43,718 bases of DNA, taken from Thermoplasmata archaeon. Lineage in GTDB: Archaea; Thermoplasmatota; Thermoplasmata; Lutacidiplasmatales; UBA184. The position numbers and the translations under genes were made by a program. The notes under the pieces are model-generated. The model did no database searches and had not been told where the DNA came from. It saw only the letters and a list, made by a program, of their open reading frames with translations. The stretch spans positions 1 through 43,718 of the forward strand of contig JAKAOB010000003.1 in the NCBI GenBank assembly GCA_021812305.1, in the 5' to 3' direction. Below, piece after piece: positions 29,759 to 43,718 of the stretch (position 1 is the stretch's first letter; the number at the start of each line of letters is the position of its first letter).

Positions 29759-29983
29759 ATGACCGGAGAATCGATGGCGGCCGGGACGACGATGACCTTC
29801 AAGACCCCGGGAACACCGGAAGGGATGCGCCGGGCGATCCTCCTGTCGATCCTGGGGCCGGTCGCGTGGTTGTGCTTTACCCTGGTCTATGTAGGGTTCT
29901 GGGCGCAGGGGTTCACCCTGTTCCAGAGCATCGTGGTCGTCCTGACCTCCCTGGTCGCCCTGGCGGGCGTCATGGGGGGGTAG
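29759..29983 (+). CDS. Small two-helix membrane protein
   Basis: A 74-residue protein from the ATG at 29759: a polar N-terminus of about 25 residues, then helix 1 (ILLSILGPVAWLCFTLVYVG) and helix 2 (FQSIVVVLTSLVALAGVMGG), ending in Gly-Gly-stop. Such two-helix proteins are common and mostly uncharacterised in Thermoplasmata. It has chromosome-like GC-rich codons and is the last gene before base composition drops, so it marks the left shoulder of the island. Confidence 0.6.
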   Translation: MTGESMAAGTTMTFKTPGTPEGMRRAILLSILGPVAWLCFTLVYVGFWAQGFTLFQSIVVVLTSLVALAGVMGG

Positions 29984-30127
29984 TACCATAGGGGGTCGAA
30001 ATGACACCCCCCACCCCTCTCACGAAGCGTCCTTCATCTCAAGGGATTGCCGCAAGCCAGTCCCGTCGCGAGCGAGTGGCTCAACGGGTCAGGCTGGAGG
30101 CGGTTCTTGCCGCGTTCGCCAATGAGC

Positions 30128-33100
30128 CTATGACGGCTCTGGGTCCCAAGCGGTCACGCCGTGAACGCCAAAAGCTAGGGTGAAACGCACTGGGTCGCCA
30201 CGATGCAATGGAACGCTACCTGGCCGTCTCGGATTGAAGAACAAATCCAGCCCGAGATTCGGAACGTTGTGCGGATAAACGGATCCGACGCTTTCGTAGG
30301 TCACTTCCTTAACCCGGCCGGTGAAAATCTTTCGATGGCCGCCCTCCCGGATGAAGTAAAGATATGGGCGTGAAATCAACTTCGGCGTCCCCCTTCGAAT
30401 CTCGCCGAGCAACCGCCTGACCTCCGCGCCTCTTTCTGCGCCGACCAACGCTGTTGCTCGCTGCACCAAGTCAAGCCAACTAAGTTGCCACCGCTTCGGA
30501 TGCTCGGAGCAGGCTCGGCCGATCATATCGGAAAGGATCACCGCCTTAGGGTACGAAGGATTGTCCGCTTTGAGTTCGGTTTCCAGGCTCGCGCGAAAAG
30601 CCGGCACGCACGGACTCTTGGCGCCTACTGCCGCTTCGAGATAGCGCCGGGCGTCTGCTATTCTATTCGACTGCTCCGCTCGCTGATACAATAGGAAATA
30701 CCCAAAACCTGTACCCTGAGACTTGAGCAGACTCTCAGCAAGGGCGTCGTCCAGTTCCCCGGCGTCGTCGGCGAGGCGTGCCATCTGGTCAGTCAGGAAT
30801 GCGTCAGTATTGCCGGACGCCTCCCATCCCTCCTGCAGCACGCCCAGCGCTTCTCCAAGCAACGAAATGCGCTTGGGTCCCTCCGTTCTGCCTGCCAAGT
30901 CACGCAGCACTCGCGCTTCAACGCCGTACGAGTGGGAATTCCATCTGGTCCCCGTCCTCGACTCGCGCAGGAGCTCCCTGATACGAAGGACCTCGGAGGA
31001 CTGTTCGAGACCGGGCAACTCCTTGCCCTCATAGCTCTTCCAAAGAGCGTCGGCGCGAGTCGTCTGAATGATCTCCAGCCGTTCAGTAGGGGGCTCCTCC
31101 ATCCGGGCGAGAGAGATCGCATCGTCCAGCGTCGCCAGCGCAGCGGCGTACTGTCTATCGTCCAGCAGCCTGATTCCCTGATGATGCCGGAGCAGCGAAG
31201 TCATTCCACGCGATTCTAAGCGTTGGAAAAGGTTGAGAATCGTCTGACGATCTGCGATTGTGTCGACTGGGGTCTCCCGCTCCTGCCGGCCAGGTCGGCC
31301 GACAAGAAGGTCGGCCACAAACTGGTGTTCCGCTCCGCTATCCAAATTGACCGCCCCCAGGATAGTCTCCAGCGCAGAGAGGATGGTTGGTCCTCCGCCC
31401 AGCTCCTGTGAAACAAGCTCGCCGAATCTGGAATGGAAAAACGAGACCGTAGGAGTGGGCGGGACCTCATCAACCGTCAAGATTTGGGCACACTCATCTA
31501 TGCGCGTGAACAGCTCTCCGTAGTCACATCTGAGTGCCTTTGCGAGGACTGGGAGCGGGACTGGAGTCCTTCCGAGGGTCGAGAGGAGGGCTAGTCTGAC
31601 TACTGCTTGCGCACCTGCGCTGAGGTTCAAGACCGACTGCCGTGCGATATCTTGGAAACTCTTCCGAGATTCGTCGACCAGTCGGTACATCAACTCGATG
31701 AACGTCCGGTCAGCGCTCACCTGTGATTCGAGTTCCGCGCGCGACCAACGGAAGGGTCGAACTGTTGGATCAAGCTGGTCGACATAGTCCGTGAACGGGC
31801 CAATTTCGTTCGCCTCAATCGAGTCCGGGACCCGAATCTGACAGACTTCGATTCCGAACTCTCGAACGCGATCCGGATCAATCGGCTCATACGCAACCGA
31901 AATCACTAGAACATCCGCAAAACCCCGCCACTGAAGAGAATTGATGAGGCTTCGAGCATTTTCGCCCCGGACCTGATCATCTAACAAGACAGTCAAAAAG
32001 GTCCGCCGATCTTCGCTCGTTGAACGAGCCAACTTACCGAACGCCACAACTGAGTCCTCATCAGGGGTGGCTGCACGCTGTCCGAGTCGAAGCCCGACGG
32101 ATGGAAACTCTCGAACTGCCGAGAATAGTGCCGCGTTGGCAGCGACTGTTTTCCCCGAGCCGGGCCGGCCGTAGAGGTGAATCAGAGCTGGTGGGCGAGG
32201 ATCTAGTGAAACCCACTTTGTAACGAAGGCTCGCTCTTGGCGTATGAGTTCGCGGTTCCACTCGAGTCGGTTCGAGTAAGGGCCTAGCTCGGACGTTCTT
32301 CCTCTGAAGAAATCCTTCGGGGGACACTTCCGTTCGAGCTCCAGCTGGGTGACTGGGTCAAACTGTCGGAGAAGGTCGGTCACCCGAGCCGCGTCTATGG
32401 AAAGGGTTCGGTCTCCAAAGGCGAGAACAAGTTGGGTCTTCTCAACGGTCCTGTCCACTTCCTCAGACAGTCGCCGAGCAAATTCGGCTGCGGGTTCGAC
32501 GATTGGTTCGATTCCTAGGATCCCGAATCGCCGCTTCCTTTCGTCGTTGGGATCGGATCGAAAAAGAGCGCGAATGGGAATCCTAGACCTCGAGGCGAGC
32601 CCTCTGATGACCTCAGCGGACTTTTCGAGGATTCCATCGTCGAAACTGTATCCGATTGCGAGAACCCCAGTGGCACGGACGAACTCGTCCAAGTGCTCGA
32701 ACATCAAATGGTTCTCGCGCTCCTTTCTGGCGATGTCCGCGCTACTGAGCGCCATCTGACCGCCTGAGTCAATTGGCGCCGTTCGGCAGCCCATAATCTT
32801 GAAGATCGGAACCGTTCCGGGGGTGACGAACATCACCCTGCGTGCATCCACGTAGACGATTGGCTTGACCATTCTCCCGTCGCGATAGTGGTCCTCGATC
32901 GCTGTGTCGAAATTAGTCGTGTAGACGGCCGACCAGGGCAGATCCAAGATCGAGCCGAGTTCAGCGCTCGCTCTGACGTTCGCGAGACGCTTTGCTACGG
33001 AAGCATACACCTCGGACCTTCGGCCGAGGCGAATGCAAATGTCATCCAAAGTATTGCGTGGGCTTTCTTGGGCCGGGACTCCCATTTCATTGGCGACCCA

Positions 33101-33214
33101 AGCCGCCAAATCTCCCCATGATGCTCCGCCGGAGTCGGCGGTCATGCCCGCTCCTACAAACAGAACGCCGCCGCCGTTGCGGATGTCCTGCGCGAGAGTA
33201 TCAATCAACCCCAA
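30128..33214 (-). CDS. SIR2-STAND-TPR protein, Avs5/DSR-like anti-phage candidate
   Basis: A 1028-residue protein with clearly lower GC than its left neighbours. Residues 1-240 are a SIR2-like domain: VLFVGAGMTADSGGASWGDL, the catalytic-Asn motif YTTNFDTAIEDHY, and LAIGYSFDDG. The usual K-x-H-G motif with the catalytic His reads FKIMG, so His is replaced by Met. A STAND-type NTPase follows with Walker A LYGRPGSGKTVAAN at about 345-355. The C-terminal 380 residues are TPR-like helices, probably the sensor. Related proteins destroy NAD+ after sensing phage; with this change NADase activity is doubtful. Start is a TTG at 33214, with no better in-frame start upstream. It abuts the casposon polymerase, both leftward. 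Confidence 0.82.
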   Translation of the reverse strand: MGLIDTLAQDIRNGGGVLFVGAGMTADSGGASWGDLAAWVANEMGVPAQESPRNTLDDICIRLGRRSEVYASVAKRLANVRASAELGSILDLPWSAVYTTNFDTAIEDHYRDGRMVKPIVYVDARRVMFVTPGTVPIFKIMGCRTAPIDSGGQMALSSADIARKERENHLMFEHLDEFVRATGVLAIGYSFDDGILEKSAEVIRGLASRSRIPIRALFRSDPNDERKRRFGILGIEPIVEPAAEFARRLSEEVDRTVEKTQLVLAFGDRTLSIDAARVTDLLRQFDPVTQLELERKCPPKDFFRGRTSELGPYSNRLEWNRELIRQERAFVTKWVSLDPRPPALIHLYGRPGSGKTVAANAALFSAVREFPSVGLRLGQRAATPDEDSVVAFGKLARSTSEDRRTFLTVLLDDQVRGENARSLINSLQWRGFADVLVISVAYEPIDPDRVREFGIEVCQIRVPDSIEANEIGPFTDYVDQLDPTVRPFRWSRAELESQVSADRTFIELMYRLVDESRKSFQDIARQSVLNLSAGAQAVVRLALLSTLGRTPVPLPVLAKALRCDYGELFTRIDECAQILTVDEVPPTPTVSFFHSRFGELVSQELGGGPTILSALETILGAVNLDSGAEHQFVADLLVGRPGRQERETPVDTIADRQTILNLFQRLESRGMTSLLRHHQGIRLLDDRQYAAALATLDDAISLARMEEPPTERLEIIQTTRADALWKSYEGKELPGLEQSSEVLRIRELLRESRTGTRWNSHSYGVEARVLRDLAGRTEGPKRISLLGEALGVLQEGWEASGNTDAFLTDQMARLADDAGELDDALAESLLKSQGTGFGYFLLYQRAEQSNRIADARRYLEAAVGAKSPCVPAFRASLETELKADNPSYPKAVILSDMIGRACSEHPKRWQLSWLDLVQRATALVGAERGAEVRRLLGEIRRGTPKLISRPYLYFIREGGHRKIFTGRVKEVTYESVGSVYPHNVPNLGLDLFFNPRRPGSVPLHRGDPVRFTLAFGVHGVTAWDPEPS

Positions 33215-33342: not shown

Positions 33343-36021
33343 CTAGCTGTGGGCGGCTCCGTTCAAGATATGGGCGACCCGCTCGAGCAGCCCTCCCCGG
33401 TACCCCCTCACGACCTCCCCCTTCCTCAGCCTCTTCCTGAGCCTCGCGAAGTTCCTCTTGTCAATCCCATGCTCAGTGGCCCAAGAGAGAGGCAGGGCGA
33501 GGATTCGTTCGGCCCAAGGAACGTAGACCTTCGCCCGTGCTCCGGTCGGACCGACGCCCAGAACCCGGGCTGTCTCGATTCGGTTCGCCTCCTTGCCGAT
33601 CCCGTGGGTCCGGGACCTTCGGACCAGGACGTTCCGCCGAACCATCCGGCCCCCCGCGTCGCGCCCGCATTTCCGGTCCTCGTGCTCCGCGAAAGCCTCG
33701 ACCACTGAGCTCCAGTCTCTCTGACCAGGTAGTCCCATGAGCGCATCCCGGCCTACGGTGTCCTCCTTGGAGAGGTAGGGGACGAGCTCGGATCTCCACC
33801 CATCAACGGCCGCAGACGGCTCGATGTAGCGAGCCGTCATGAACGAGAATGGCCGGATCGACCCGAGGCGTTTCACCCGTGGCAAGAGCATCGGGGTCGA
33901 CAGGGAGAACTGCGCCGTGGCCGGAATCCCGACGAACCGCTTACCCGCACTCGGCCCCTCCTCAATGATCGCCTCCCAGACGTGCGCGATGAACTCCTTC
34001 CGCTCCCCGGCTACCTCGAAGGATCCTAGGCCGTGGTCAGACGCGGATTTCCGAAAGACGTGGGGCCGGCCGTGACGGTCTCGGACGAAGAGGCAGTAGC
34101 GTTTACAGGAGAGGCCATAGAACGATGGGGCGACGGCCGGAGAACCCGCCGGATACTGTTCTCGCGGGGCCTTCTCGCCAGTCTCGTCCTTCAAGAAGTG
34201 GGTCGGGATGGCGTAGGGATTGAGCGAGTCAAAGACCCGAGTGACCTCCGGAGCGATTCGGGAAGGCGTGACGAAGACCGAGTCGGTGTCTTCGTAAACG
34301 ACCTCGCCGCCGTTCGACTGGACAACCACTTCTGCCAAAGCAAGCAGCAGATGCGAGGCGGAGGTGAGGGTCGCCCCGAGGAGCGGGCAGTAGAAGTCGC
34401 CGACCTCCTCCGTCTCAGAGTCCTCCCACTCGAACGGGTCGTCGGTGAGGCCGTGAATCGTTGAGGTGCCGGCCCCTCGCTTCCGGTTCACTTCAACCGA
34501 GATCCCGTAGGCCAGCGCGTTGGAGAGGATCTTCAGCCCTTGGGCGCGAGACTCCCATCCCAGCGTTTTCGTCGCCTTCTCCCGGATGCGCTCCTCGGAG
34601 AGCTTCCGGACCATGTCCTCCTCGGACCCGATGTCGACGCCGAGCAGCCGGATCGGGCGAACTGCCTGCCGGCGGACGGGCTCGAACGTGGTCGCCCGGA
34701 CGATGCGCGGGACCCGGCCCGATTGCAGCTTTGCGGCGATGAGGTCCGGAACCAGGTAACGAAGTGTCGTCCCGGGCTCCGAGGTGACATGATTCCAGCC
34801 GATGGTCGGGGGCTGCGAGGGGTCTCCGTTGTAGGTCGAACGGACTGGGAGAATCTCGCCCCGGGCCTCGACTTCGCAGAGGGTCCACATCCGGAGGTCC
34901 AGCCACGTCTCGCGACGGAGCAGGTCCGCGACTGTCAGGGAGTCCAGCCACGACCGGACCTCCCCAGTGGAATCGCGGGTCCGGAGGCGCTTGCCGGTCA
35001 GGAACTGGTCGGCGGCCAGCAGGCAGTAGAGCGATGGGAACTCGGAGGTGAAATCGAGGACGGCTACGTCAGGGACCTCGCGTCCGGCGACCCGGCACTC
35101 GACCTTACCCGCGTAGAACGCGGACATGACCCACCCGGTCCAGTCCGCCGAAAGCTGGGGTGGCACGATGCCCCGGGCGCGAAGAGCCGCCTTCGCGAGG
35201 GAAGCTGGGGAGAAGAGGCGCGTCGGGTGCTCCTCGACGCCGAAGGCCCGATACCGGGCGACGCACTTCTCGTAGAGCTCGTAGGTGAGAGCCACATCAT
35301 TGAGCGCGTAGTCGAGATACCGGGCGTCGACAGGGCCGTGGTAGTCGGTCCTGGTTTTCTTCCGCGCGCATCCGAACGCAGTCCCCGCGGACTCGAGCGA
35401 GTGCCTCTCGCCCGTCAGCACATGAACGAAGGTCCGCAGGTCCAGGAAGGCTCCTCGATAGCGGCGCCAGCGGTTCTTGGTCCCGGCGAAGGCGATGAAC
35501 GACTTTGTCGAGTCGACGCGTTGGACCCGGATGTTCGGAATGTGCCCGGACTCGGGGTCGGACCGTTGGACGAGTCGGAGCGTGAAGTGCTCCTTAGTCC
35601 CGATCCTCTCCCTGGGGGCCCAGTCGACGGCCAGCCGCGCGAGGTCGAAGGGCAGGTTGAACCCGACGACGATGGCCTGCATCTCGAGCGCCAGGGGGAC
35701 GAAGAGCTTCCGGACGAAGCGGTCGAGCGTGAGCACGTCCGCGTCGTGCGCCTTCGCCCACGCGGCAACCGACCGGGCCTCGGCCTCCGTCAGCCTTCCG
35801 GTGAAGACGATGGTCCGGCAGAGGTGTCCGAGGGCGTACTCGCGGGCGATCCCGAAGCGGAGCTCCTGCTGGAGATCCGTCGTCGTTTCGGTGTCGAGGA
35901 TGAGAACCAGATCGGCGTTGGGGGTCTCCGGTTCGGGGCGCACTCGCTTCGAGGATTGCTTGGGCTTGGAGTGGACCCGAACGTAGACCGGCGGCTCTTC
36001 GAGCGTTGCGGCTGCGTTCAT
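33343..36021 (-). CDS. Casposon family B DNA polymerase with 3'-5' exonuclease
   Basis: An 892-residue family B polymerase. The exonuclease motifs are present: LDTET (D43, E45), GFNLPFD (N122, D126) and YALND (Y238, D242). Polymerase motif A reads VLDFTSEFPSLY (D323), a variant of DxxSLYP. Motif B is K497 in LKILSNALAYG and motif C is YEDTDS (D578, D580). All catalytic carboxylates are retained, so it should copy DNA and proofread. I see no long TPR1/TPR2 insertions of protein-primed polymerases, which fits the second casposon polymerase lineage, from Euryarchaeota. Its ATG overlaps the HNH gene's stop (ATGA). Middle GC content, between host and SIR2 gene. Confidence 0.9.
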   Translation of the reverse strand: MNAAATLEEPPVYVRVHSKPKQSSKRVRPEPETPNADLVLILDTETTTDLQQELRFGIAREYALGHLCRTIVFTGRLTEAEARSVAAWAKAHDADVLTLDRFVRKLFVPLALEMQAIVVGFNLPFDLARLAVDWAPRERIGTKEHFTLRLVQRSDPESGHIPNIRVQRVDSTKSFIAFAGTKNRWRRYRGAFLDLRTFVHVLTGERHSLESAGTAFGCARKKTRTDYHGPVDARYLDYALNDVALTYELYEKCVARYRAFGVEEHPTRLFSPASLAKAALRARGIVPPQLSADWTGWVMSAFYAGKVECRVAGREVPDVAVLDFTSEFPSLYCLLAADQFLTGKRLRTRDSTGEVRSWLDSLTVADLLRRETWLDLRMWTLCEVEARGEILPVRSTYNGDPSQPPTIGWNHVTSEPGTTLRYLVPDLIAAKLQSGRVPRIVRATTFEPVRRQAVRPIRLLGVDIGSEEDMVRKLSEERIREKATKTLGWESRAQGLKILSNALAYGISVEVNRKRGAGTSTIHGLTDDPFEWEDSETEEVGDFYCPLLGATLTSASHLLLALAEVVVQSNGGEVVYEDTDSVFVTPSRIAPEVTRVFDSLNPYAIPTHFLKDETGEKAPREQYPAGSPAVAPSFYGLSCKRYCLFVRDRHGRPHVFRKSASDHGLGSFEVAGERKEFIAHVWEAIIEEGPSAGKRFVGIPATAQFSLSTPMLLPRVKRLGSIRPFSFMTARYIEPSAAVDGWRSELVPYLSKEDTVGRDALMGLPGQRDWSSVVEAFAEHEDRKCGRDAGGRMVRRNVLVRRSRTHGIGKEANRIETARVLGVGPTGARAKVYVPWAERILALPLSWATEHGIDKRNFARLRKRLRKGEVVRGYRGGLLERVAHILNGAAHS

Positions 36022-36452
36022 GCGGTCGCCTTGGCTGCTTCGGCGTACTGCGCTCGGAGCCGTTTTCCGGTCTCGTGGAAGGCGTAACCCTCGAACCGAG
36101 CCCGTTCTTCGCAGAGGTCGCTCAGCCCTCGAAGCACGAAGGTCGCCTTCAGTTCGGGCGGGTTGTTCTCCCGCTCCCAGCGTGGGTCCCAGCCATTCTG
36201 CCGTTCCGATAGCCGATTGTGACAACGCTCGCAGACAGGGACCGTGACCTCCGAGTTGAACTTCCCCGCGATGTGGTGGGCCTGAGTATCGACTCGCGAG
36301 TCGCAGACCGCGCAGCCGTTTGCCCCCTGGGCCCCCGACTTCACCCACTCGACCCACGCCGAAACAGTTCCGATCTGGCGAGGGACCCTGGCCCGGACGC
36401 CTTCGATAGCCCGGCCGAGGTTGGCAGTGGGATCGGGGACCGAGTCGCTCAT
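36018..36452 (-). CDS. HNH endonuclease of the casposon operon
   Basis: A 144-residue HNH nuclease. CAVC (C47, C50) and CERCHNRLSE (C74, C77, H78, N79) form the zinc knuckle, and AHHIAGKF (H59, H60) supplies the catalytic His pair of the beta-beta-alpha-metal fold. It would cut DNA with a divalent metal. HNH nucleases are a common part of casposons, next to the polymerase. The ATG at 36452 overlaps the upstream gene's stop and its own stop overlaps the polymerase start, both as ATGA, so translation is coupled. The C-terminal 45 residues are an alpha-helical tail rich in Arg and Ala. Confidence 0.87.
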   Translation of the reverse strand: MSDSVPDPTANLGRAIEGVRARVPRQIGTVSAWVEWVKSGAQGANGCAVCDSRVDTQAHHIAGKFNSEVTVPVCERCHNRLSERQNGWDPRWERENNPPELKATFVLRGLSDLCEERARFEGYAFHETGKRLRAQYAEAAKATA

Positions 36453-37144
36453 CCGATTTCGTCGGCCTCCTCGGGCTCCGCGTAGAGGTCGCCGAACGCT
36501 CCGAAGTCCGCCTCGGATCGTTCGAGGGCCGCGCGCAACTTCCTGGGGTCGGTTTCGAAGGTGTGGAACTTGCCGGCGACGTCGACGTACGTCCGTCCTT
36601 CGAACTCCTTGAGTCGGCTCGCGTCGCCGGTTTCGAAGTAATGGCGAACGGCGTTCGCGTAGCGAGAGAGCAGCGTCGCCGTCTTCGAGTCGCCGACCAG
36701 GAAGGACCGCCGCGCGCCATGCTCGTAGGTCTGAAGGTATCGCTGGATCCGGTCGGAGCGTGTCGCTACCCAACGGCTTCCGCGCTTCTGGAAGGCCCCG
36801 CTGGCCCTCCGAACGGTCTTGGGCGAGATCCCGGCCTTTCGGGCGAGCTTGGAGAGGGAACCCTCGCCCCGGCGCACCCGAGAGACGACTTCCAAAGCCC
36901 GTTCACGATGAGCCCGTTCGCGTGGGGTAAGCTGGGTAAAGGGAAGACGGAACGCCGGAGCCCGAGGAACAGCCGATAGCGGCCGCTGTTCAGTCCGGGG
37001 GTGCCTTCGGAGCTGACTGAGGGTCGCGGTCGGATACCGGGCGTGGGTTCGGGCGATCCTGGCGGCGTAGGGGGTTCGTTGCGGCTGCCCGGCAGCCCAT
37101 TGCTCGTAGGACGCGTACTTCCGCGAGAAACGGCGGGGAGGCAT
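36449..37144 (-). CDS. Helix-turn-helix protein of the casposon operon
   Basis: A 231-residue basic protein. A helix-turn-helix lies at about residues 95-120 (GSLSKLARKAGISPKTVRRA, of the resolvase/homeodomain-like kind). The region at about 128-190 (RSDRIQRYLQTYEHG, then SRYANAVRHYFETGD) resembles C-terminal domains seen in archaeal mobile-element HTH proteins, though I cannot name the family. It probably binds element DNA, at the ends, at the origin or at its own promoter. Its ATG lies one base after the stop of the 84-residue HTH gene, and its stop overlaps the HNH start, so all four genes form one unit. Confidence 0.7.
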   Translation of the reverse strand: MPPRRFSRKYASYEQWAAGQPQRTPYAARIARTHARYPTATLSQLRRHPRTEQRPLSAVPRAPAFRLPFTQLTPRERAHRERALEVVSRVRRGEGSLSKLARKAGISPKTVRRASGAFQKRGSRWVATRSDRIQRYLQTYEHGARRSFLVGDSKTATLLSRYANAVRHYFETGDASRLKEFEGRTYVDVAGKFHTFETDPRKLRAALERSEADFGAFGDLYAEPEEADEIG

Positions 37145-37145
37145 T

Positions 37146-37400
37146 CTACGCCCCCTCGGCGGGATTGTTCACGGGGTCCGGGGAGTTTCCCACGCCCCCC
37201 CGGGCCCTTTTCGCGGCCCAAGCCGCCCTCCGACATGTCTCGGCCTTCAGGCCGAGCCGCTGAGCGATCTCGGGCCAGGCGGCCCCGGAAGCTCGGAGCG
37301 AAGTGATCTCGCGTAGTTTCTCAGCCGTCACCTTTCGGGGGCGACCCGCTACGGTCCGCACCCTCTCGGGGGGTTCGGCCCCGCTCGCCACGTCGACCAT
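37146..37400 (-). CDS. Small HTH protein, first gene of the casposon operon
   Basis: An 84-residue protein. After an N-terminal tail, GRPRKVTAEKLREITSLRAS and WPEIAQRLGLKAETCRRAAW form a Hin-recombinase-type HTH with the GRP lead-in that inserts into the DNA minor groove. Such small HTH proteins are typical casposon passengers and probably repress the operon they head. The ATG at 37400 faces the divergent gene at 37464, with an AT-rich control region of 63 bases between them. It is followed after one base by the 231-residue HTH gene. Confidence 0.72.
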   Translation of the reverse strand: MVDVASGAEPPERVRTVAGRPRKVTAEKLREITSLRASGAAWPEIAQRLGLKAETCRRAAWAAKRARGGVGNSPDPVNNPAEGA

Positions 37401-37463
37401 TGCCCTCGGTAGGTCTATGTTTCTTCACAGTGCATAAGTAGTATAGTGACGCTACGTGAAATT
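37401..37463. promoter_or_regulatory. Divergent promoter of the casposon operon and the 37464 gene
   Basis: A 63-base gap between two divergent genes, much richer in A and T (CTATGTTTCTTCACAG and GCATAAGTAGTATAGTG) than the coding sequence on both sides. It must hold the promoters of both units and is the natural place for an operator bound by the small HTH protein. I see no clean palindrome. Confidence 0.5.
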
Positions 37464-38225
37464 ATGCCCCGACATAGCTGGTCACCCGAGGAACTGGAGG
37501 ATCGCTTCGTTCCCTGTCTCAAGGACAAGGGCCGGGGCCTGACCTACGGGAAGACGGTCGCAGCCTACGCGGAGCGATGGCGGCCGTGCTCCGATAGGAC
37601 AGCCAAGGCTCACCTCGCGATCCTGGTCCGCGGGATCGGACAAGGGACCGTCAAGGAGATTGGCCGATACCGCGGCCCCGAGGGGTTCCTCTACGGGCTG
37701 CTCAACGAGAAATCGTTCGCAGACGCGAAGGAGGCCGCGGAGATACCGCCGGACTCTACCCCGAAACCTGCCTCTATCGTCCACCTCGGCGGTCCGTATC
37801 ACGATACGCCGATGCGTCTGGAATGGACGAACTGCCCCGTTACGGCGAAGATCGTCCGAACCCAAGTCTGGACCCTCGGGCTTGCCGATTTCATGTCGTG
37901 CCCCATCTGCAACTGGTTCCACTTCCTCGGGGTCAGCCCCAAGATGAAGGACCAACGCGTCTATGCATGGCAGATGGACCCCTTGGTGAATGCCGAGGAA
38001 TACGCGGACTCGCTATCGAGGCTGTTCCGGGGTGACCCTAAGACCTTCCGGCCCCAACCCTCGCGGATCCCTCGGATGCTCGGAGGCGGCCACTACGTCG
38101 GTCTGATGTTCCGCACCTCGTGGGACTACGATCCGATGGAACGCCTCCGAGAGCTGGGGGCCAGAGAGGTGAAGGGGGACCGGCGCAGGAAGGCCAAGGT
38201 ACGGAATTCGCGGTCGAAGGCCTAA
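37464..38225 (+). CDS. Casposon-region protein with HTH-like N-terminus and Cys motifs
   Basis: A 253-residue protein from the ATG at 37464 (a GTG at 37446 is also in frame and adds six residues). The N-terminal 80 residues (WSPEELEDRFVPCLKDKG and RTAKAHLAILVRGI) look like a winged-helix DNA-binding domain. The middle has a possible zinc site (NCPVTAK, then MSCPICNWFHFLG). The C-terminus is strongly basic (KGDRRRKAKVRNSRSKA). It is probably a DNA-binding protein of the element, but I recognise no named family. It is divergent from the HTH-HNH-polymerase operon and convergent with cas1. Confidence 0.65.
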   Translation: MPRHSWSPEELEDRFVPCLKDKGRGLTYGKTVAAYAERWRPCSDRTAKAHLAILVRGIGQGTVKEIGRYRGPEGFLYGLLNEKSFADAKEAAEIPPDSTPKPASIVHLGGPYHDTPMRLEWTNCPVTAKIVRTQVWTLGLADFMSCPICNWFHFLGVSPKMKDQRVYAWQMDPLVNAEEYADSLSRLFRGDPKTFRPQPSRIPRMLGGGHYVGLMFRTSWDYDPMERLRELGAREVKGDRRRKAKVRNSRSKA

Positions 38226-38460: not shown

Positions 38461-39657
38461 CTATACTATATGGGCGATACGATTCCGTATCTTACCATAT
38501 AGGCGGACCGGCTTCCCCACTGCCGCCCTCCTCTTCATGTCCCATAACCCCGCCTTCGAGATCCCGAGCTTTCGGGCTTCGGCATAGGACATTGCCGCGA
38601 CCCTCTCGGCGATGCCGGTCTCGACGTGGCCGGATTCCCCGGTATGGAACGGAACCGTATGGTGGAGCCTTCCGTTTGGTTTGGTGAGGTACCGGGCAAG
38701 ACCACGGGCAGCCTCGGTAACGAGGGACTCGTAGGAGTAGTTCCGGCCCCCGACCGCCACCTTGCGATTCATGTTGGCCGAGAGGCGGTCGATGAGCGCC
38801 CTAGCGGCGGCCGGCCGGAGTCGGACATGGTAATTCTCGGTCACGATGAAGTCCCGCTTCCGGTCGAGCTTCTTGTCCCGGAGGACTTCGAGGACCGAGA
38901 GGTCTACGAGCCAGCGGAACGGCTCTTGGAGATCGTAGACCAAGGGCAACTTCGCTGGGGATGTCTCATGAAGAAAGCCGATCTCCGGAAGCAAGCCGAC
39001 GGAAACCAAAGAGGATCGGCAAAGGGATTCGAGAAGGGAATAACCGTAGTTGAGCAGGGCATTGGTCGGGTCAGCCGCGGAGTTGTTCCAGGAGCGCTGA
39101 GGGGATCGCCGGGAGACAAAGCCCGCCGCGGGCCATAGGAATTCAACGGCCTTTGTGTACTCCTTCCACCACGCCTGGGCGACTCGGGCCTCGTAGACCC
39201 GAAGATCGTTGAGGGAGCGGCCCTGGTCGGAGCCACCCTCCTTCCGGATGGGGTCCGGTTCGACCGGGAGGGTCCGGCTCAGGTGCTCGGCAAGGGAGAC
39301 GGTCTTCGAGACCTTCTCCCGGATGAACTCGCGGGCGATCCCGAGACGGCTGGCGGGGTTCGAGTAGGCTTGGACCTGAGCGACCCTGAGCTCCCCGTTC
39401 GAGGGCCCCCGGGGCAGGATCGTGGAGAGGACCGTCCCGTTCCAGCGGAGGAGGGTTACGGGCACGTCATGGATCGCGAGGAACCGGAGCGCCTCGAAAC
39501 TGACCGACCCCGCCAGGGAGTCGACGACGACCGAGTCGAAAGGGAGCTGCTGAGGGCGGTAGGACTCCTTTCGACCCTCGGAACGCCAGTCGACTTCGAG
39601 TGTGCGGCCGTTGACTCGTAGGGACGTGCCGAAGCCGTGGAGGAGGAGGGGGCGCAT
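38461..39657 (-). CDS. cas1: Casposase: solo Cas1 integrase with C-terminal HTH
   Basis: A 398-residue Cas1. The catalytic set is intact: E156 in YEARVAQAWW, H230 in GFLHET, and D242/E245 in LVYDLQEPFR, within the familiar DPTNALLNYGYSLLE context. CRISPR Cas1 proteins usually end near residue 330; here another 50-60 residues add a helix-turn-helix (YAEARKLGISKAGLWDMKRR, then a basic tail), a hallmark of casposon Cas1. No cas2 gene and no CRISPR array are present. It should integrate the casposon at a target by nucleophilic attack of the 3' ends. It is convergent with the 37464 gene and divergent from the zinc-ribbon/Cas4-like operon. An inverted repeat covers its start. Confidence 0.92.
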   Translation of the reverse strand: MRPLLLHGFGTSLRVNGRTLEVDWRSEGRKESYRPQQLPFDSVVVDSLAGSVSFEALRFLAIHDVPVTLLRWNGTVLSTILPRGPSNGELRVAQVQAYSNPASRLGIAREFIREKVSKTVSLAEHLSRTLPVEPDPIRKEGGSDQGRSLNDLRVYEARVAQAWWKEYTKAVEFLWPAAGFVSRRSPQRSWNNSAADPTNALLNYGYSLLESLCRSSLVSVGLLPEIGFLHETSPAKLPLVYDLQEPFRWLVDLSVLEVLRDKKLDRKRDFIVTENYHVRLRPAAARALIDRLSANMNRKVAVGGRNYSYESLVTEAARGLARYLTKPNGRLHHTVPFHTGESGHVETGIAERVAAMSYAEARKLGISKAGLWDMKRRAAVGKPVRLYGKIRNRIAHIV

Positions 39658-39688
39658 ATGCTAACAACTGATAGCATACTCCCATATG
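39655..39688. promoter_or_regulatory. Inverted repeat in the cas1 / Cas4-operon divergent region
   Basis: TATGCTA (39657-39663) and TAGCATA (39672-39678) form a perfect 7-bp inverted repeat with an 8-base spacer, bracketed by two copies of CATATG (39655-39660 and 39683-39688). It covers the cas1 start codon and lies 25-60 bases before the divergent zinc-ribbon gene, so it looks like an operator, possibly for one of the element's HTH proteins or Cas1's own HTH domain. It might instead be part of a terminal repeat. Confidence 0.5.
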
Positions 39689-39712: not shown

Positions 39713-39874
39713 GTGCCTCGCACGACTTACTCGGTCACCGGGTGGGAGTGCTTGCGGTGCGGGCACAAGTGGGTTCCAAGAATCTCGCGTGAGCCGAAGC
39801 GGTGCCCGGGGTGCAAGAGCCCTTACTGGAATCGCACCCGAACGCATCCGTCGCGGCCCGTCCGTCCGGTATGA
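39713..39874 (+). CDS. Small zinc-ribbon protein heading the Cas4-like operon
   Basis: A 53-residue protein from a GTG. GWECLRCGHKW (C13, C16) and RCPGCKSPYW (C31, C34) make a classic zinc ribbon; the remaining tail is basic and Pro-rich. Similar short ribbons occur widely in archaea as probable DNA- or RNA-binding partners. Its TGA overlaps the ATG of the Cas4-like gene (ATGA), which argues that it is real and co-translated. It may be an adaptor or regulator of the nuclease module. Confidence 0.7.
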   Translation: MPRTTYSVTGWECLRCGHKWVPRISREPKRCPGCKSPYWNRTRTHPSRPVRPV

Positions 39875-40887
39875 CAAACAGCAAGGGATTGCGGCGGAAG
39901 AGTCTCCGTCGCTTTCGTTCAACGAAGTTCGCTAAGGTCGGGGCGAAGGGTCCGACTCCCCGGGTTGGCCGCTTGATCAAGGCGCCAGAACCATCGAATC
40001 CACCGCCAGACTTGCCACTTGGCTCGGACGGGGTCAGCCCGACCGATCTACGCCTCGTTGAGCTCTGCCCATTACAACTCTGGCATGCAGCGCGATGGCC
40101 GTCGGAGACGGCTGCCCCTTCACTGGGCCTGGCGATTGGACAAATCGTGCATGCCGCCAGAGAGGCGATCTCGATGGAGCAGCGAGGAATCTACCTCCAA
40201 GCAGAATCTGAATCCAAGTTATGGAATGAAGACGTTGAGGCGCGGCTGAGAGCGCTGATTGAGTCTACCTTCGAGCGCCACTACTACCTCCATGTCTTCG
40301 GCGACCCGGCCGCTCGGGCAAGGTCAGAATGGACCGGCCGCCTCCTTGGCATGGAACGGGGGAGGGCCGATAGGGCTCGTGACGCTTGGAATCTTGGGCT
40401 GAGGGGCGTCGACCTCGCGAACGCCTGCACACCAGAGCGAACCGAAGCAGAATGGTTCGACTCGGGCCTGAGGATGCACGGATTCTGCGATGAGCTCTGG
40501 CGGGACGGCACGAAGTCCCGGCCTGTCGAGCTAAAGACGAGCCCACCGAATGATGCGAATCGGTCAGCAAACCGGTACCAGGTCGCGGCGTATGCATACT
40601 TGGCTCAGAACGTAGAAGGACTGGTGGTGAGTACGTGCGAAGTGCAATATCTTCGCGAGGGCTCCTCCGACAGATTCAGGTTCGGGCCCGCCTGGGAAGG
40701 TAAAGTGCGTCGGCAAGCCCATCGAGTGATGCTGGTGCGTCACTCGCTGGATCCGCCGACCGGTGCCCCGTCGCCACAAACATGTGGGTGGTGCCCGTTC
40801 CAGCAAGTATGCCCCCAGTCCGCCGCACCGTCGGTTGATGATGCTTTCGCTAGCCTCAAGGTTTTCGACGACTTCGGGGGCCGTTGA
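39871..40887 (+). CDS. Cas4-like PD-(D/E)XK nuclease with 4Fe-4S cysteines
   Basis: A 338-residue nuclease of the Cas4/RecB-nuclease group. C66 (ELCPLQLWH) with C305, C308 and C314 (TCGWCPFQQVC) give the four Fe-S-cluster ligands. The active-site set is H94 (GQIVHAA), D207 (HGFCDELW), E220-x-K222 (VELKT) and Q236 in the RYQVAAYAYL helix. It is expected to trim single-stranded DNA ends. It is longer than CRISPR Cas4 (about 200 residues); the extra part is a basic N-terminal tail and an insert at about 100-190. The ATG at 39871 overlaps the zinc-ribbon stop; its own stop overlaps the TTG of the HerA-type gene. Lower GC than the chromosome. Confidence 0.85.
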   Translation: MTNSKGLRRKSLRRFRSTKFAKVGAKGPTPRVGRLIKAPEPSNPPPDLPLGSDGVSPTDLRLVELCPLQLWHAARWPSETAAPSLGLAIGQIVHAAREAISMEQRGIYLQAESESKLWNEDVEARLRALIESTFERHYYLHVFGDPAARARSEWTGRLLGMERGRADRARDAWNLGLRGVDLANACTPERTEAEWFDSGLRMHGFCDELWRDGTKSRPVELKTSPPNDANRSANRYQVAAYAYLAQNVEGLVVSTCEVQYLREGSSDRFRFGPAWEGKVRRQAHRVMLVRHSLDPPTGAPSPQTCGWCPFQQVCPQSAAPSVDDAFASLKVFDDFGGR

Positions 40888-43157
40888 TTAATGTGACCGC
40901 GAGCGACTGCCGGCAGCAGGCAAGGCGCGTTGCAGAAAGTGTCTGGCGCGCGCTCCATCGGTCTCGGCCCTTGAGTTCAGAAGATGTGCAGCGGAAGGTT
41001 CGGGAAATCGGACTGCTCGAGTCGTCGAGGCTTGGCGAGCCAGATCATGACGCGCTAGCCCAGTTCTGCGAGTGGCTTTCATCGAGGATCATTCAGGAGG
41101 CGGGACCAGCAGGCAAGTATCGACAGCTCGACGTACACCGAGGAGTCGTGAGACTCTTCGGGCAATCCCCTTCCTTCTCCGATCCTGAGTTCGACATAGT
41201 TTCGAACATCGGAAAACAGACTTCGGTGTGGCGGTTCGACTCGGTCGGTAGCAGGCGCGACCTCCATGTCCTGACTCCTGGGACGCTCGAGCGCGTTTCC
41301 AGAGGCACCGAGGGACCTGTCTCGATCACGCAGGTAGTCCTTGGCAACCGGACGCAAGCGCTGCAGGTCGAGTCATTTGTGGCTGCACCCGAGAGGCATG
41401 AATCGCGAGGTGCAAGCGAGCAGGTGAAGGAGGACGCCAGAGATATCCCAGCCAAAGCTTCCGAGAGAAGAAGTCCTCCTGATGACGGCTCGAGGGAAGG
41501 CTCGACTCTCGACTCTGCTGCGAAGTCCCCAGCGGGCGGGGGTAACCGAATCGAAGCTTCACGAGGAAGCGCGAGACAAGTGGACTCAACTCACACCCCT
41601 ACCGAGGACGGGGTGATCGGCGCCATCGGGCCGTCACCGCCGACAATGAGCCGTGCCGGCGGGTATGTTGTAAACGGCATCCTCTATGTGCCCGAGATAC
41701 CGAACATTGCGGTCACGAAAGGGCTCCCGGTTATCGCAGAGTCACATAGCGACCCGTCTAACCCGAAATCTCCGCTCATTCGGGTGTTCGCCCGAATCGG
41801 GCAGACCACGGTCGAAACCTCAAGCACGATTGAGCGAGCTCCAACGAGCACGACGTACGTTGATAGTACGTTCGAGATCTTGCGCGAGGCATACCCTGCG
41901 TCCGAACAGGGCGCCGAGATTCGCCCTTGGACCCCGAAGGCAATGGGAGGTTACCGTCTGCGGTGGCCGCGTACTCAAGACCTTTCCCTGATGGGCTTCC
42001 CCGACTCTGGCGTCTGCCTCGGCTGGCAGGAGGGGGTACCCACAAGGCTCCAGTATTGGTTCCCGGTGGAGGCAATCTACAGATCGCTGTTCGTTGTCGG
42101 AGGAATGGGCGGAGGAAAGACCAACTTCATTTCGTGCCTCGCCCGCGCGATCGCAAACCGAGATCCGGCCGCCTTCCCTCATAGCCTTCGGCCGGCGGTT
42201 GTAATCCTCGATGCTGAGGGCAGAAAGGAGTACGCAGACCTAGCGACCGAAGTCCGGCCCGAGCTTCGCCGCTCCCTCGAGGAGCTCGGAATCGCCCCTC
42301 ACGGCGTGAGGGATTTCAGATACCACTCGATAGGGACGAAGGCTCGAAGCTTCCGGTTTGCAGACATTCCGCCTCAGGATACCGTGGTGTTCCCCGCCAC
42401 GCTTCCGACAAAGTCGGAGAGGGCGTGGATTCAGGGTGCTGAACTCTTCTGGAGGCATGCCCAAGCTGCCCAAAGATCGGTGACGGCGGCCCAGGCGACC
42501 GCTGCCATCGCTGGAGTGAACCTGCCGCTCGGAATCAACACTGCGATGAGAGCAGCAATTGTACGCGCTGCGTCGGATAGCTGCTGGGATGTGTTTGATC
42601 TTCCCGAGACCGAGCCCCTAACTGTGGACGAGCTCCTACAGCCGGGCCGGGTGTCTGTCGTCGATGTGTCCAACCTCCTGGGCGGGGACAGAATCCGCGC
42701 CGCGGGCCTCGCTCTCCTGACACTCTTTGACGTGGCGAAACGCCGGCAGCCGCAGCACCCGTGCCCGATCATCTTGATCGTAGACGAGGCGACGCGCTTG
42801 GTCCCCGCTGGATTTAGCGGCGCGAGCGCCAAGGACTATACCGACAAGATGGGAAAGTGGCTGACAGAGATTCTTCATCGTGGGCGACGCGCGAGCTACG
42901 GTCTCGTCTTGGCAACTCAATACCCCGACGACGTGTTGAGGGGCCTGGCCGACCAGCCCCAGACCAAAGTGGCCTTCGCGCTGGCCCCTCGCTACGACCG
43001 GTGGGTCGACACGAACTTCTCAGACGGTGCGGGTGAACGGCTCCGGGAGCTGGCTTCTCCTGGAGTCGGATACGTGGCCCGCACCGCACGCGTGGAGGGC
43101 GATCCCCAAGGCGTCCCACATCCGGCCACCGTGATTCACTTCCCACAGGTACGGTAG
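40884..43157 (+). CDS. HerA/FtsK-type P-loop ATPase, likely DNA translocase
   Basis: A 757-residue protein. Residues 1-150 are a helical and beta N-terminal domain of unknown kind. Residues about 175-255 are a polar, low-complexity linker. The ATPase has Walker A VVGGMGGGKTNFIS (about 403-416), an acidic VVILDAEGRKEY near 435, Walker B PCPIILIVDEATRLVP (about 627-642), and a late LVLATQYPDDVL with polar sensor residues, in the HerA-FtsK order. It probably forms a hexamer that pumps DNA. HerA ATPases usually pair with a nuclease; here the Cas4-like and NYN genes are the candidates. The TTG at 40884 overlaps the previous stop; a GTG at 40893 is an alternative start. Confidence 0.83.
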   Translation: MINVTASDCRQQARRVAESVWRALHRSRPLSSEDVQRKVREIGLLESSRLGEPDHDALAQFCEWLSSRIIQEAGPAGKYRQLDVHRGVVRLFGQSPSFSDPEFDIVSNIGKQTSVWRFDSVGSRRDLHVLTPGTLERVSRGTEGPVSITQVVLGNRTQALQVESFVAAPERHESRGASEQVKEDARDIPAKASERRSPPDDGSREGSTLDSAAKSPAGGGNRIEASRGSARQVDSTHTPTEDGVIGAIGPSPPTMSRAGGYVVNGILYVPEIPNIAVTKGLPVIAESHSDPSNPKSPLIRVFARIGQTTVETSSTIERAPTSTTYVDSTFEILREAYPASEQGAEIRPWTPKAMGGYRLRWPRTQDLSLMGFPDSGVCLGWQEGVPTRLQYWFPVEAIYRSLFVVGGMGGGKTNFISCLARAIANRDPAAFPHSLRPAVVILDAEGRKEYADLATEVRPELRRSLEELGIAPHGVRDFRYHSIGTKARSFRFADIPPQDTVVFPATLPTKSERAWIQGAELFWRHAQAAQRSVTAAQATAAIAGVNLPLGINTAMRAAIVRAASDSCWDVFDLPETEPLTVDELLQPGRVSVVDVSNLLGGDRIRAAGLALLTLFDVAKRRQPQHPCPIILIVDEATRLVPAGFSGASAKDYTDKMGKWLTEILHRGRRASYGLVLATQYPDDVLRGLADQPQTKVAFALAPRYDRWVDTNFSDGAGERLRELASPGVGYVARTARVEGDPQGVPHPATVIHFPQVR

Positions 43158-43158
43158 A

Positions 43159-43632
43159 ATGCTGGTAACAGAGGACTCACAAGACAGGGTAATGGTCTTC
43201 ATCGATCTTGCAAATGTCCAGCGCTCGGTTCGATCCAAGGAGTCTAGTGGTTTCCGGCTGGATTACTACAGACTAGTGAAGGAGCTCGTCGGCCCACGGC
43301 GGCTAATCGGTGCGTACGTCTTCGATGCAGTCTCCTCGGCAGATCGAACATCTATAGAGCCCAAGAAACGCCTTCACGACGCCCTTCGGTACCTTGGATT
43401 CCGCGTAGTCGCAAGAGAAGTTGCCTTCGAAGAGGAGGGCCAGCAAAAGGAGGTGGATGTCGCCCTCGCCACCGAGATGCTCGTGGCCGCCCTCAGAAAT
43501 GCGTTCGACGTCGCGATTCTTGTTTCCGGAGATCGCGACTTCGTCCCGGCGGTAGAGCGGCTGAGGACAGAGGGAAAGCGCGTCGAGGTTGCCTTCTTTG
43601 GCGGATCGGTTGAAAACGAGGTACGTGTTTAG
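43159..43632 (+). CDS. NYN-domain (LabA-like, PIN-type) nuclease, possibly truncated
   Basis: A 157-residue NYN domain: VMVFIDLANVQ (D16, N19), KEVDVALATEML (D100) and ILVSGDRDFVPAVERL (D125, D127) supply the acidic metal-binding pocket of this RNase-like fold. It starts one base after the HerA-type stop, so it belongs to the same operon. LabA-like proteins normally continue past this point with a last helix of the kind 'L..AAD.FI.L'; here the frame stops right after VEVAFFGGSVENEVRV. That stop is 20 bases from the end of a GC-rich host gene, so the C-terminus may have been cut at an element boundary. It would cut RNA or single-stranded nucleic acid. Confidence 0.85.
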   Translation: MLVTEDSQDRVMVFIDLANVQRSVRSKESSGFRLDYYRLVKELVGPRRLIGAYVFDAVSSADRTSIEPKKRLHDALRYLGFRVVAREVAFEEEGQQKEVDVALATEMLVAALRNAFDVAILVSGDRDFVPAVERLRTEGKRVEVAFFGGSVENEVRV

Positions 43633-43651
43633 CCCCTGACGGAGCGAGCGA

Positions 43652-43718
43652 TCAGGTGAGGGCGGCGTAGAGTCGATCCGCCGGGTTCTCGCCCCGCGCC
43701 CGCCAGCTTCCCATCACG
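43652..43718 (-). CDS. 3' end of a GC-rich chromosomal gene
   Basis: The minus strand from the right edge is open to a TGA at 43654-43652, coding for the last 21 residues of a protein that end with RGENPADRLYAALT. Codon use is the GC-rich host type, unlike the operon to its left. Too little is visible to name it. Its stop lies only 20 bases from the NYN gene's stop, so the island ends directly against the 3' end of a host gene. Casposons are known to favour such sites, for example the end of the EF-2 gene or tRNA genes. Confidence 0.6.
   Translation of the reverse strand, partial: VMGSWRARGENPADRLYAALT

What the first reader, a model, noticed from the sequence alone, without database searches (positions are those of the whole stretch)
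39713..43632. Four-gene operon: zinc ribbon, Cas4-like nuclease, HerA-type ATPase, NYN nuclease
The four genes overlap or touch (ATGA, TTGA, one-base gap), so they are one functional unit. It joins a 4Fe-4S exonuclease, a DNA pump and an RNase-like fold. Known HerA partners are NurA, SIR2 (Nezha) or DUF4297; I know of no described system with Cas4-like plus HerA plus NYN. The location in a low-GC island beside a casposase and a SIR2-STAND gene suggests anti-element defence or DNA processing for the mobile element. The Cas4-like protein lies next to a Cas1, echoing the Cas1-Cas4 partnership of CRISPR adaptation.
Basis: partly seen in the sequence, partly recalled or inferred. Interest (0 to 1): 0.8.

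Follow-up and report, generated by a model that had tools for sequence, protein, structure and literature searches.

The report
Nuclease–HerA–NYN module carried by casposon
An archaeal transposon of the casposon class carries, in a slot that related elements fill with other anti-virus genes, an undescribed set of a DNA-cutting enzyme, a DNA motor and an RNA-cutting enzyme; the same set recurs in two Asgard archaea with the cutter and motor fused into one protein, so it is probably a real defence-type machine.

Summary
The genes are there, with two corrections. (1) The zinc ribbon belongs with the casposase: a sister casposase in the same genus keeps it (85% aa), with the same operator-like palindrome. 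At the same ATGA junction that element carries an MmeI-type restriction-modification enzyme instead of Cas4-HerA-NYN. Other casposons of the phylum hold restriction or Pbe genes beside Cas1, in two cases inside terminal inverted repeats. (2) The NYN gene is cut by an IS66-type insertion sequence at about 43621, where the contig ends, so the operon's true 3' end is unknown. The Cas4-like (PF12705), HerA, NYN trio is therefore variable cargo in a slot used for defence genes. It recurs: a motif scan of 84,980 genomes gave two hits, a Heimdall- and a Lokiarchaeon, both with an NYN gene followed by one protein that fuses a PF12705 nuclease to the same HerA type (clade support 96/92). No Cas1 adjoins the Lokiarchaeal copy. 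Best reading: a HerA-nuclease complex with an NYN RNase subunit, probably anti-element defence. Parallels are HerA-NurA, DUF4297-HerA and the CRISPR-associated nurA-csm6-herA cluster. Defence itself is untested, and the copy here may be broken.

The parts
29974..30013 (.). Candidate left end of the casposon: G-run followed by TAGTACCATAGGGGGTCGAAATGACACCCCCC, where a small host gene (from about 29760) is cut
   Evidence: Relative G066 has the intact gene at this site; homology stops at 29976. Family-2 casposon ends in G138 and G342 also start with a G-run. No mate found in the window.
30128..33214 (-). SIR2-like domain plus NTPase protein (1028 aa), inside the element next to its left end
   Evidence: PF13289 1.6e-9; ThsA-type SIR2 6.5e-13
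33343..36087 (-). Casposon family-B DNA polymerase
   Evidence: 34% identity, E 8e-130 to the PolB of the G138 casposon; nothing in Pfam
36018..37400 (-). Casposon HNH nuclease and two helix-turn-helix proteins
   Evidence: HNH 7e-15 and HTH 7e-39 to the G138 casposon
38461..39657 (-). Casposase (Cas1 with C-terminal extension)
   Evidence: PF01867 5e-48; 40% identity to the G138 casposase over residues 1-394
39657..39678 (.). Operator-like inverted repeat TATGCTA-N8-TAGCATA between the divergent casposase and zinc-ribbon genes
   Evidence: Same arms and spacing in G046
39713..39874 (+). Zinc-ribbon protein (53 aa), a companion of the casposase rather than of the trio
   Evidence: 85% aa beside the casposase of G046, 62% beside that of G034
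39871..40887 (+). Cas4-like PD-(D/E)XK nuclease (338 aa), 4Fe-4S-type cysteines present
   Evidence: PF12705 1.9e-12, PF01930 1.3e-5; residues
40884..43157 (+). HerA/FtsK-type ATPase with a long N-terminal region (757 aa)
   Evidence: Closest relatives are two Asgard nuclease-HerA fusions (BLASTP E 3e-36 and 4e-32; clade 96/92); Foldseek to HerA-NurA, DUF4297-HerA and SIR2-HerA
43159..43620 (+). NYN-domain RNase-like gene, 3' end missing
   Evidence: PF01936 1.5e-25, profile positions 1-126 of 145
43621..43718 (.). End of an IS66-type insertion sequence inserted in the NYN gene; contig ends inside it

Best explanation
The Cas4-like, HerA and NYN genes form one machine carried as exchangeable cargo by a family-2 casposon. 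Inferred mechanism: the ATPase forms a HerA-type hexamer that encircles and translocates double-stranded DNA. The PD-(D/E)XK nuclease docks on it and degrades invading DNA, as NurA or DUF4297 do on their HerA. The NYN subunit adds an RNase activity (transcript destruction, or tRNA/mRNA cleavage that halts the cell). The most likely use is defence against viruses or rival elements, to the benefit of casposon and host. Shown: gene order, cargo-slot position, recurrence of the three domains, the nuclease-HerA fusion, intact nuclease and ATPase motifs. Inferred: complex formation, substrates, RNase role, defence. The zinc ribbon belongs to the casposase and shares a divergent operator-like region with it, so the cargo may be expressed from the casposon's own promoter. 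This copy may be impaired by the IS66 insertion.
For: (1) Recurrence and fusion: Heimdallarchaeota L142 and Lokiarchaeota L147 have an NYN gene followed by a PF12705 nuclease fused to this HerA type (PF11977 1.4e-12; PF12705 3e-8; Cas4 models 4e-4; fusions 55% identical; NYNs 48% identical). (2) The window HerA groups with these two (96/92; BLASTP 124-137 bits against 63 or less for other HerAs). (3) Cargo slot: after the same zinc ribbon and ATGA junction, G046 has an MmeI-type IIG enzyme (PADLOC E=0); G001 has PbeA/PbeC divergent from Cas1; G342 has type IV and type IIG enzymes; G138 has an N6 methyltransferase. In G138 and G342 that cargo lies inside the terminal inverted repeats. (4) The modelled HerA core matches HerA-NurA and the antiphage HerA complexes. 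(5) Precedents: DUF4297-HerA cleaves dsDNA and resists phage (PMC11291478); nurA-csm6-herA cluster near CRISPR arrays (PMC3396285).
Against: The Lokiarchaeal neighbourhood shows no defence genes (TPR proteins); the Heimdall contig is too short to judge. Only three examples are known, from a motif scan that can find only relatives keeping HRGR[RK]..[FY]G...TQ. Nuclease and NYN of the window and of Asgard are not alignable by BLASTP and the NYNs belong to different Pfam families (PF01936, PF11977), so either could have been recruited independently. The window HerA has a long branch. The AlphaFold model of the nuclease is poor (pLDDT 43). The NYN gene is truncated here.
Confidence: 0.5

Rival explanations
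1. DNA-end processing or repair machine, a HerA-NurA analogue in which a PF12705 nuclease replaces NurA: it resects DNA ends for recombination, or handles casposon termini and replication intermediates; NYN is an accessory or structural PIN-fold subunit.
For: HerA-NurA is the best structural match. The Asgard copy in Lokiarchaeota stands alone, without defence genes. Casposons are known to carry exonucleases and a HerA-like helicase (PMC4046053).
Against: The sister element has a restriction enzyme in the same slot, and the trio is absent from the other sampled casposons, so it is not needed for transposition. An RNase-type NYN is not expected in end resection.
Confidence: 0.25
2. Cas4-Cas1 partnership: the nuclease trims casposon ends or captured DNA for the neighbouring casposase, as Cas4 does in CRISPR adaptation; HerA and NYN assist.
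For: Adjacency to the casposase and an operator-like palindrome between the two transcription units; Cas4-like motifs intact.
Against: Other casposons of the phylum lack the nuclease. The closest HerA relatives carry the nuclease fused to HerA, with no Cas1 beside it in L147. Sequence is below the Cas4 equivalog cut-off.
Confidence: 0.08
3. A DNA-packaging or conjugation motor of a virus-like element, with associated nucleases.
For: HerA/FtsK-type ATPases also pump viral and plasmid DNA; weak PDB sequence matches to the STIV B204 packaging ATPase.
Against: No relatives in IMG/VR scans, phage records or PLSDB; no capsid or secretion genes recognised near it.
Confidence: 0.05
4. In this genome the operon is a decaying remnant without function, its NYN gene broken by IS66.
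For: IS66-type end inside the NYN frame; related casposons in G046 and G034 are partly decayed.
Against: Nuclease and HerA frames are long, open and keep their catalytic motifs.
Confidence: 0.3

Closest known systems
HerA-NurA (archaeal end-resection complex)
   Same: HerA-type hexamer motor paired with a DNA nuclease; best structural match of the window HerA
   Different: The partner is PF12705/Cas4-like, not NurA; an NYN gene is added; different HerA clade; carried on a casposon
DUF4297-HerA and SIR2-HerA (Nezha) antiphage systems
   Same: HerA motor with an effector encoded next to it; DUF4297-HerA cleaves dsDNA (PMC11291478)
   Different: Neither DUF4297 nor SIR2 is in the trio; effector is Cas4-like plus NYN. 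A separate SIR2-NTPase gene lies about 6.5 kb away on the other strand
CRISPR-associated nurA-csm6-herA cluster of Thermoproteales (PMC3396285)
   Same: Same logic: DNA nuclease + HerA + an RNase-type protein
   Different: NurA and Csm6 are replaced by a PF12705 nuclease and NYN; casposon or stand-alone context, not CRISPR
HerA/FtsK 'capture' systems such as DndH and BRC (PMC10853773, PMC12839542)
   Same: HerA/FtsK domain combined with nucleases, proposed to intercept invading DNA
   Different: No ORC/Cdc6, PglZ, DUF4007 or wHTH partners; NYN and Cas4 are not mentioned as parts in those papers
Family-2 casposons (AciBoo-C1 and relatives; PMC4046053)
   Same: PolB, HNH, HTH and Cas1 with C-terminal extension; defence-like cargo
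   Different: Reported cargo includes one HerA-like helicase and one Cas4-SF1 helicase fusion, in separate elements, but not this trio
UvrD-Cas4 and COG1205-Cas4 pairs (PMC5704561)
   Same: PF12705 Cas4-like nuclease fused to or encoded with a motor in defence contexts
   Different: Motor is SF1/SF2 helicase, not HerA; no NYN

Membership tests
Family-2 casposon | Cas1 plus PolB, HNH and HTH genes | tested here: met
   tblastn to the G138 casposon: PolB 8e-130, HNH 7e-15, HTH 7e-39, Cas1 8e-105
Family-2 casposon | Terminal inverted repeats and 14-15 bp target-site duplication | tested here: inconclusive
   Left end located by comparison with the uninterrupted site in G066; right end not on the contig; no mate found
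CRISPR-type Cas4 | TIGR00372 equivalog cut-off | tested here: not met
   48.3 bits against 65; PF01930 just over cut-off
CRISPR-type Cas4 | RecB-like motifs and four cluster cysteines | tested here: met
   C66, H94, D207, E220/K222, Q237, C305/C308/C314
CRISPR-type Cas4 | CRISPR adaptation context (cas1, cas2, array) | tested here: not met
   Only Cas1 hit in the roughly 80%-complete assembly is the casposase; cas2 and arrays not searched
HerA-NurA | HerA-type ATPase | tested here: met
   Walker A/B and conserved motifs, Foldseek E 4e-15
HerA-NurA | NurA nuclease partner | tested here: not met
   Partner matches PF12705; no NurA match in Pfam for any gene of the trio
Nezha / DUF4297-HerA | SIR2 or DUF4297 gene in the HerA operon | tested here: not met
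   Pfam and PADLOC on the operon; the SIR2 gene is separate
HerA-associated trio shared with Asgard archaea | PF12705 nuclease + this HerA clade + NYN/PIN gene together | tested here: met
   L142, L147 and window
Antiphage defence system | Protection against viruses | not testable with these tools
   needs an experiment

The most novel reading that the evidence does not exclude
An undescribed archaeal immune machine in which a dedicated HerA subfamily carries a PD-(D/E)XK DNase (separate or fused) together with an NYN RNase, so that one motor couples destruction of invading DNA with RNA cleavage. It occurs in Asgard archaea, the closest archaeal relatives of eukaryotes, and is spread in Thermoplasmatota by casposons whose casposase-flanking slot exchanges whole defence systems.
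Probability: 0.3. Interest if true: 0.8.

Novelty: new variant of a known kind. Interest (0 to 1): 0.62.

Why it matters
HerA-based defence is a growing class, and each new partner tells how the motor is put to use. A fused nuclease-HerA protein with an NYN companion in Asgard archaea, and the split form on a casposon, give a testable system. The comparison also suggests that Cas1 transposons of this phylum carry a cargo slot for defence genes beside the casposase (restriction enzymes, Pbe, now Cas4-HerA-NYN). That bears on how casposons travel and on how Cas1 came to be associated with immunity.

Tried and rejected
Full-length relatives of HerA, Cas4-like or NYN by single-sequence search: HerA none in 106 order genomes and only generic HerA cores in 389 phylum genomes; Cas4 only weak matches, two of them housekeeping RecB-like genes next to a TFB-like gene; none in IMG/VR, genome contigs, PLSDB. 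PADLOC 'mad8' as a lead: that model hits 388 of 389 genomes and all 14 controls, so it is only a general HerA profile here. Neighbourhood of the next-nearest HerAs (L025-L027, L034): a different conserved set without Cas4 or NYN. Casposon right end inside the window: no significant inverted repeat. Right host flank of the insertion site in the own genome: not assembled. Far end of the IS66 copy: not found. AlphaFold of the Cas4-like protein: unusable.

Full report
What was checked. The window is the whole of contig C141 of a 1.87-Mb, 149-contig archaeal assembly, probably of the phylum Thermoplasmatota: G138, in the same class, is a single 1,486,778-bp contig whose casposon gene content fits AciBoo-C1 of Aciduliprofundum boonei (inference). 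The four frames exist as described: zinc ribbon 39713-39874, Cas4-like 39871-40887, HerA-type 40884-43157, NYN 43159-43632. The Cas4-like protein keeps the RecB-like motifs and four cysteines, and the HerA keeps Walker A and B.

First correction: the NYN end. The last 99 bases of the contig are identical to the last 99 bases of contig C7, where they follow a GNAT gene instead. They are 95% identical to a copy beside transposases in G065. The reverse-strand frame there ends in VMGSWRARGENPADRLYAALT, like the end of an IS66 transposase in G104 (LLSVLGTWKLRGENPATQLYATLS; PF03050 3e-36). An IS66-type element thus interrupts the NYN gene at about 43621, the residues after that point come from the IS, and the assembly stops inside it. 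The far end of the IS was not found.

Second correction: the zinc ribbon. The closest casposase found (G046, 83% aa over the first 160 residues) has the same divergent zinc ribbon (85% aa) and the same inverted repeat TATGCTA-N8-TAGCATA between the two genes. G034, a decayed element, also keeps the pair. Neither has Cas4, HerA or NYN. In G046 the gene joined to the zinc ribbon by the same ATGA overlap is an 826-aa MmeI-type IIG restriction-modification enzyme.

The setting. The island starts at about 29976, where a small host gene that is intact in G066 is cut. GC falls from 0.72 to 0.62 there. It holds a SIR2-NTPase gene, PolB, HNH, two HTH genes and Cas1; PolB, HNH, one HTH and Cas1 match the G138 casposon. 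Casposons with Sir2-like proteins, methyltransferases and a restriction endonuclease have been reported (PMC4046053). In related elements the flank of Cas1 carries PbeA/PbeC (G001), type IV plus type IIG enzymes (G342) or an N6 methyltransferase (G138). In G342 and G138 inverted repeats with direct repeats outside them enclose that cargo. So the Cas4-HerA-NYN genes occupy a position used for exchangeable defence-type cargo. That they lie inside the casposon is inferred, because the right end is not on the contig.

Recurrence. Single-sequence searches found only generic HerA cores. A degenerate DNA pattern for the motif HRGR[RK]xx[FY]G...TQ scanned over 84,980 genomes gave exactly two hits, in a Heimdallarchaeote and a Lokiarchaeote. 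Both encode an NYN protein (Zc3h12a-like, PF11977 1.4e-12 for the Heimdall copy) followed by a 765- or 779-aa protein with an N-terminal PF12705 nuclease domain (3e-8 in the Heimdall copy; Cas4 models at 4e-4 in the Loki copy) fused to the HerA domain. PF12705 is also the best family of the window nuclease. The window HerA matches these at 124-137 bits, against 63 bits or less for other HerAs of its phylum, and the three form one clade (96/92) in a 23-sequence tree. Long branches are a caution. The nucleases and the NYNs of window and Asgard are too diverged to align by BLASTP. No Cas1 adjoins the Lokiarchaeal copy; the Heimdall contig is only 3.2 kb.

How it most likely works. The HerA core models as HerA, and Foldseek returns HerA-NurA of Thermococcus, Sulfolobus HerA, DUF4297-HerA and SIR2-HerA. 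The fusion makes a nuclease-loaded HerA hexamer likely (inferred). NYN proteins are PIN-fold RNases (family knowledge). The CRISPR-associated nurA-csm6-herA cluster (PMC3396285) has the same three-part logic, and DUF4297-HerA shows that a nuclease on HerA can defend against phage (PMC11291478). Defence is therefore the best guess (about 0.5), with DNA-end processing as the main rival (0.25). The Lokiarchaeal neighbourhood gives no support for either.

Novelty. No description of nuclease + HerA + NYN was found in the papers searched. The library holds open-licence papers only, so this is not proof of absence. I file it as a new variant of the known HerA-nuclease kind.

Noticed in passing
L025, L026, L027, L034 (HerA ORF at L034:8631-10199): The next-nearest HerA group of the phylum sits in a conserved gene set: a roughly 350-aa unknown protein, HerA, an SMC-like ABC ATPase of about 700 aa and, where the contig allows, a roughly 300-aa unknown; the two unknowns have no Pfam or PADLOC match. 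Possibly another undescribed HerA system.
   Followed up: partly
L135:10126-16207 (G001:C20): A casposase with PbeA/PbeC genes on its divergent side and HEAT-repeat-like proteins on its downstream side.
   Followed up: partly
L139:2885-14670 (G342:C41): Apparently complete casposon with about 48-bp TIRs and repeat CCCATTAATTATTT, carrying a type IV restriction enzyme and a type IIG enzyme next to Cas1.
   Followed up: partly
30128-33214: SIR2-like plus NTPase protein (1028 aa, ThsA-type SIR2 domain) at the left end of the same element: a second likely defence cargo.
   Followed up: partly
37446-38225: 259-aa plus-strand ORF between the HTH genes and Cas1 with no family match.
   Followed up: no
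43620-43718 and G000:C7:8254-8352: Two contigs of the assembly end in the same 99 bases of an IS66-type end, typical of an assembly break at a repeat.
   Followed up: yes
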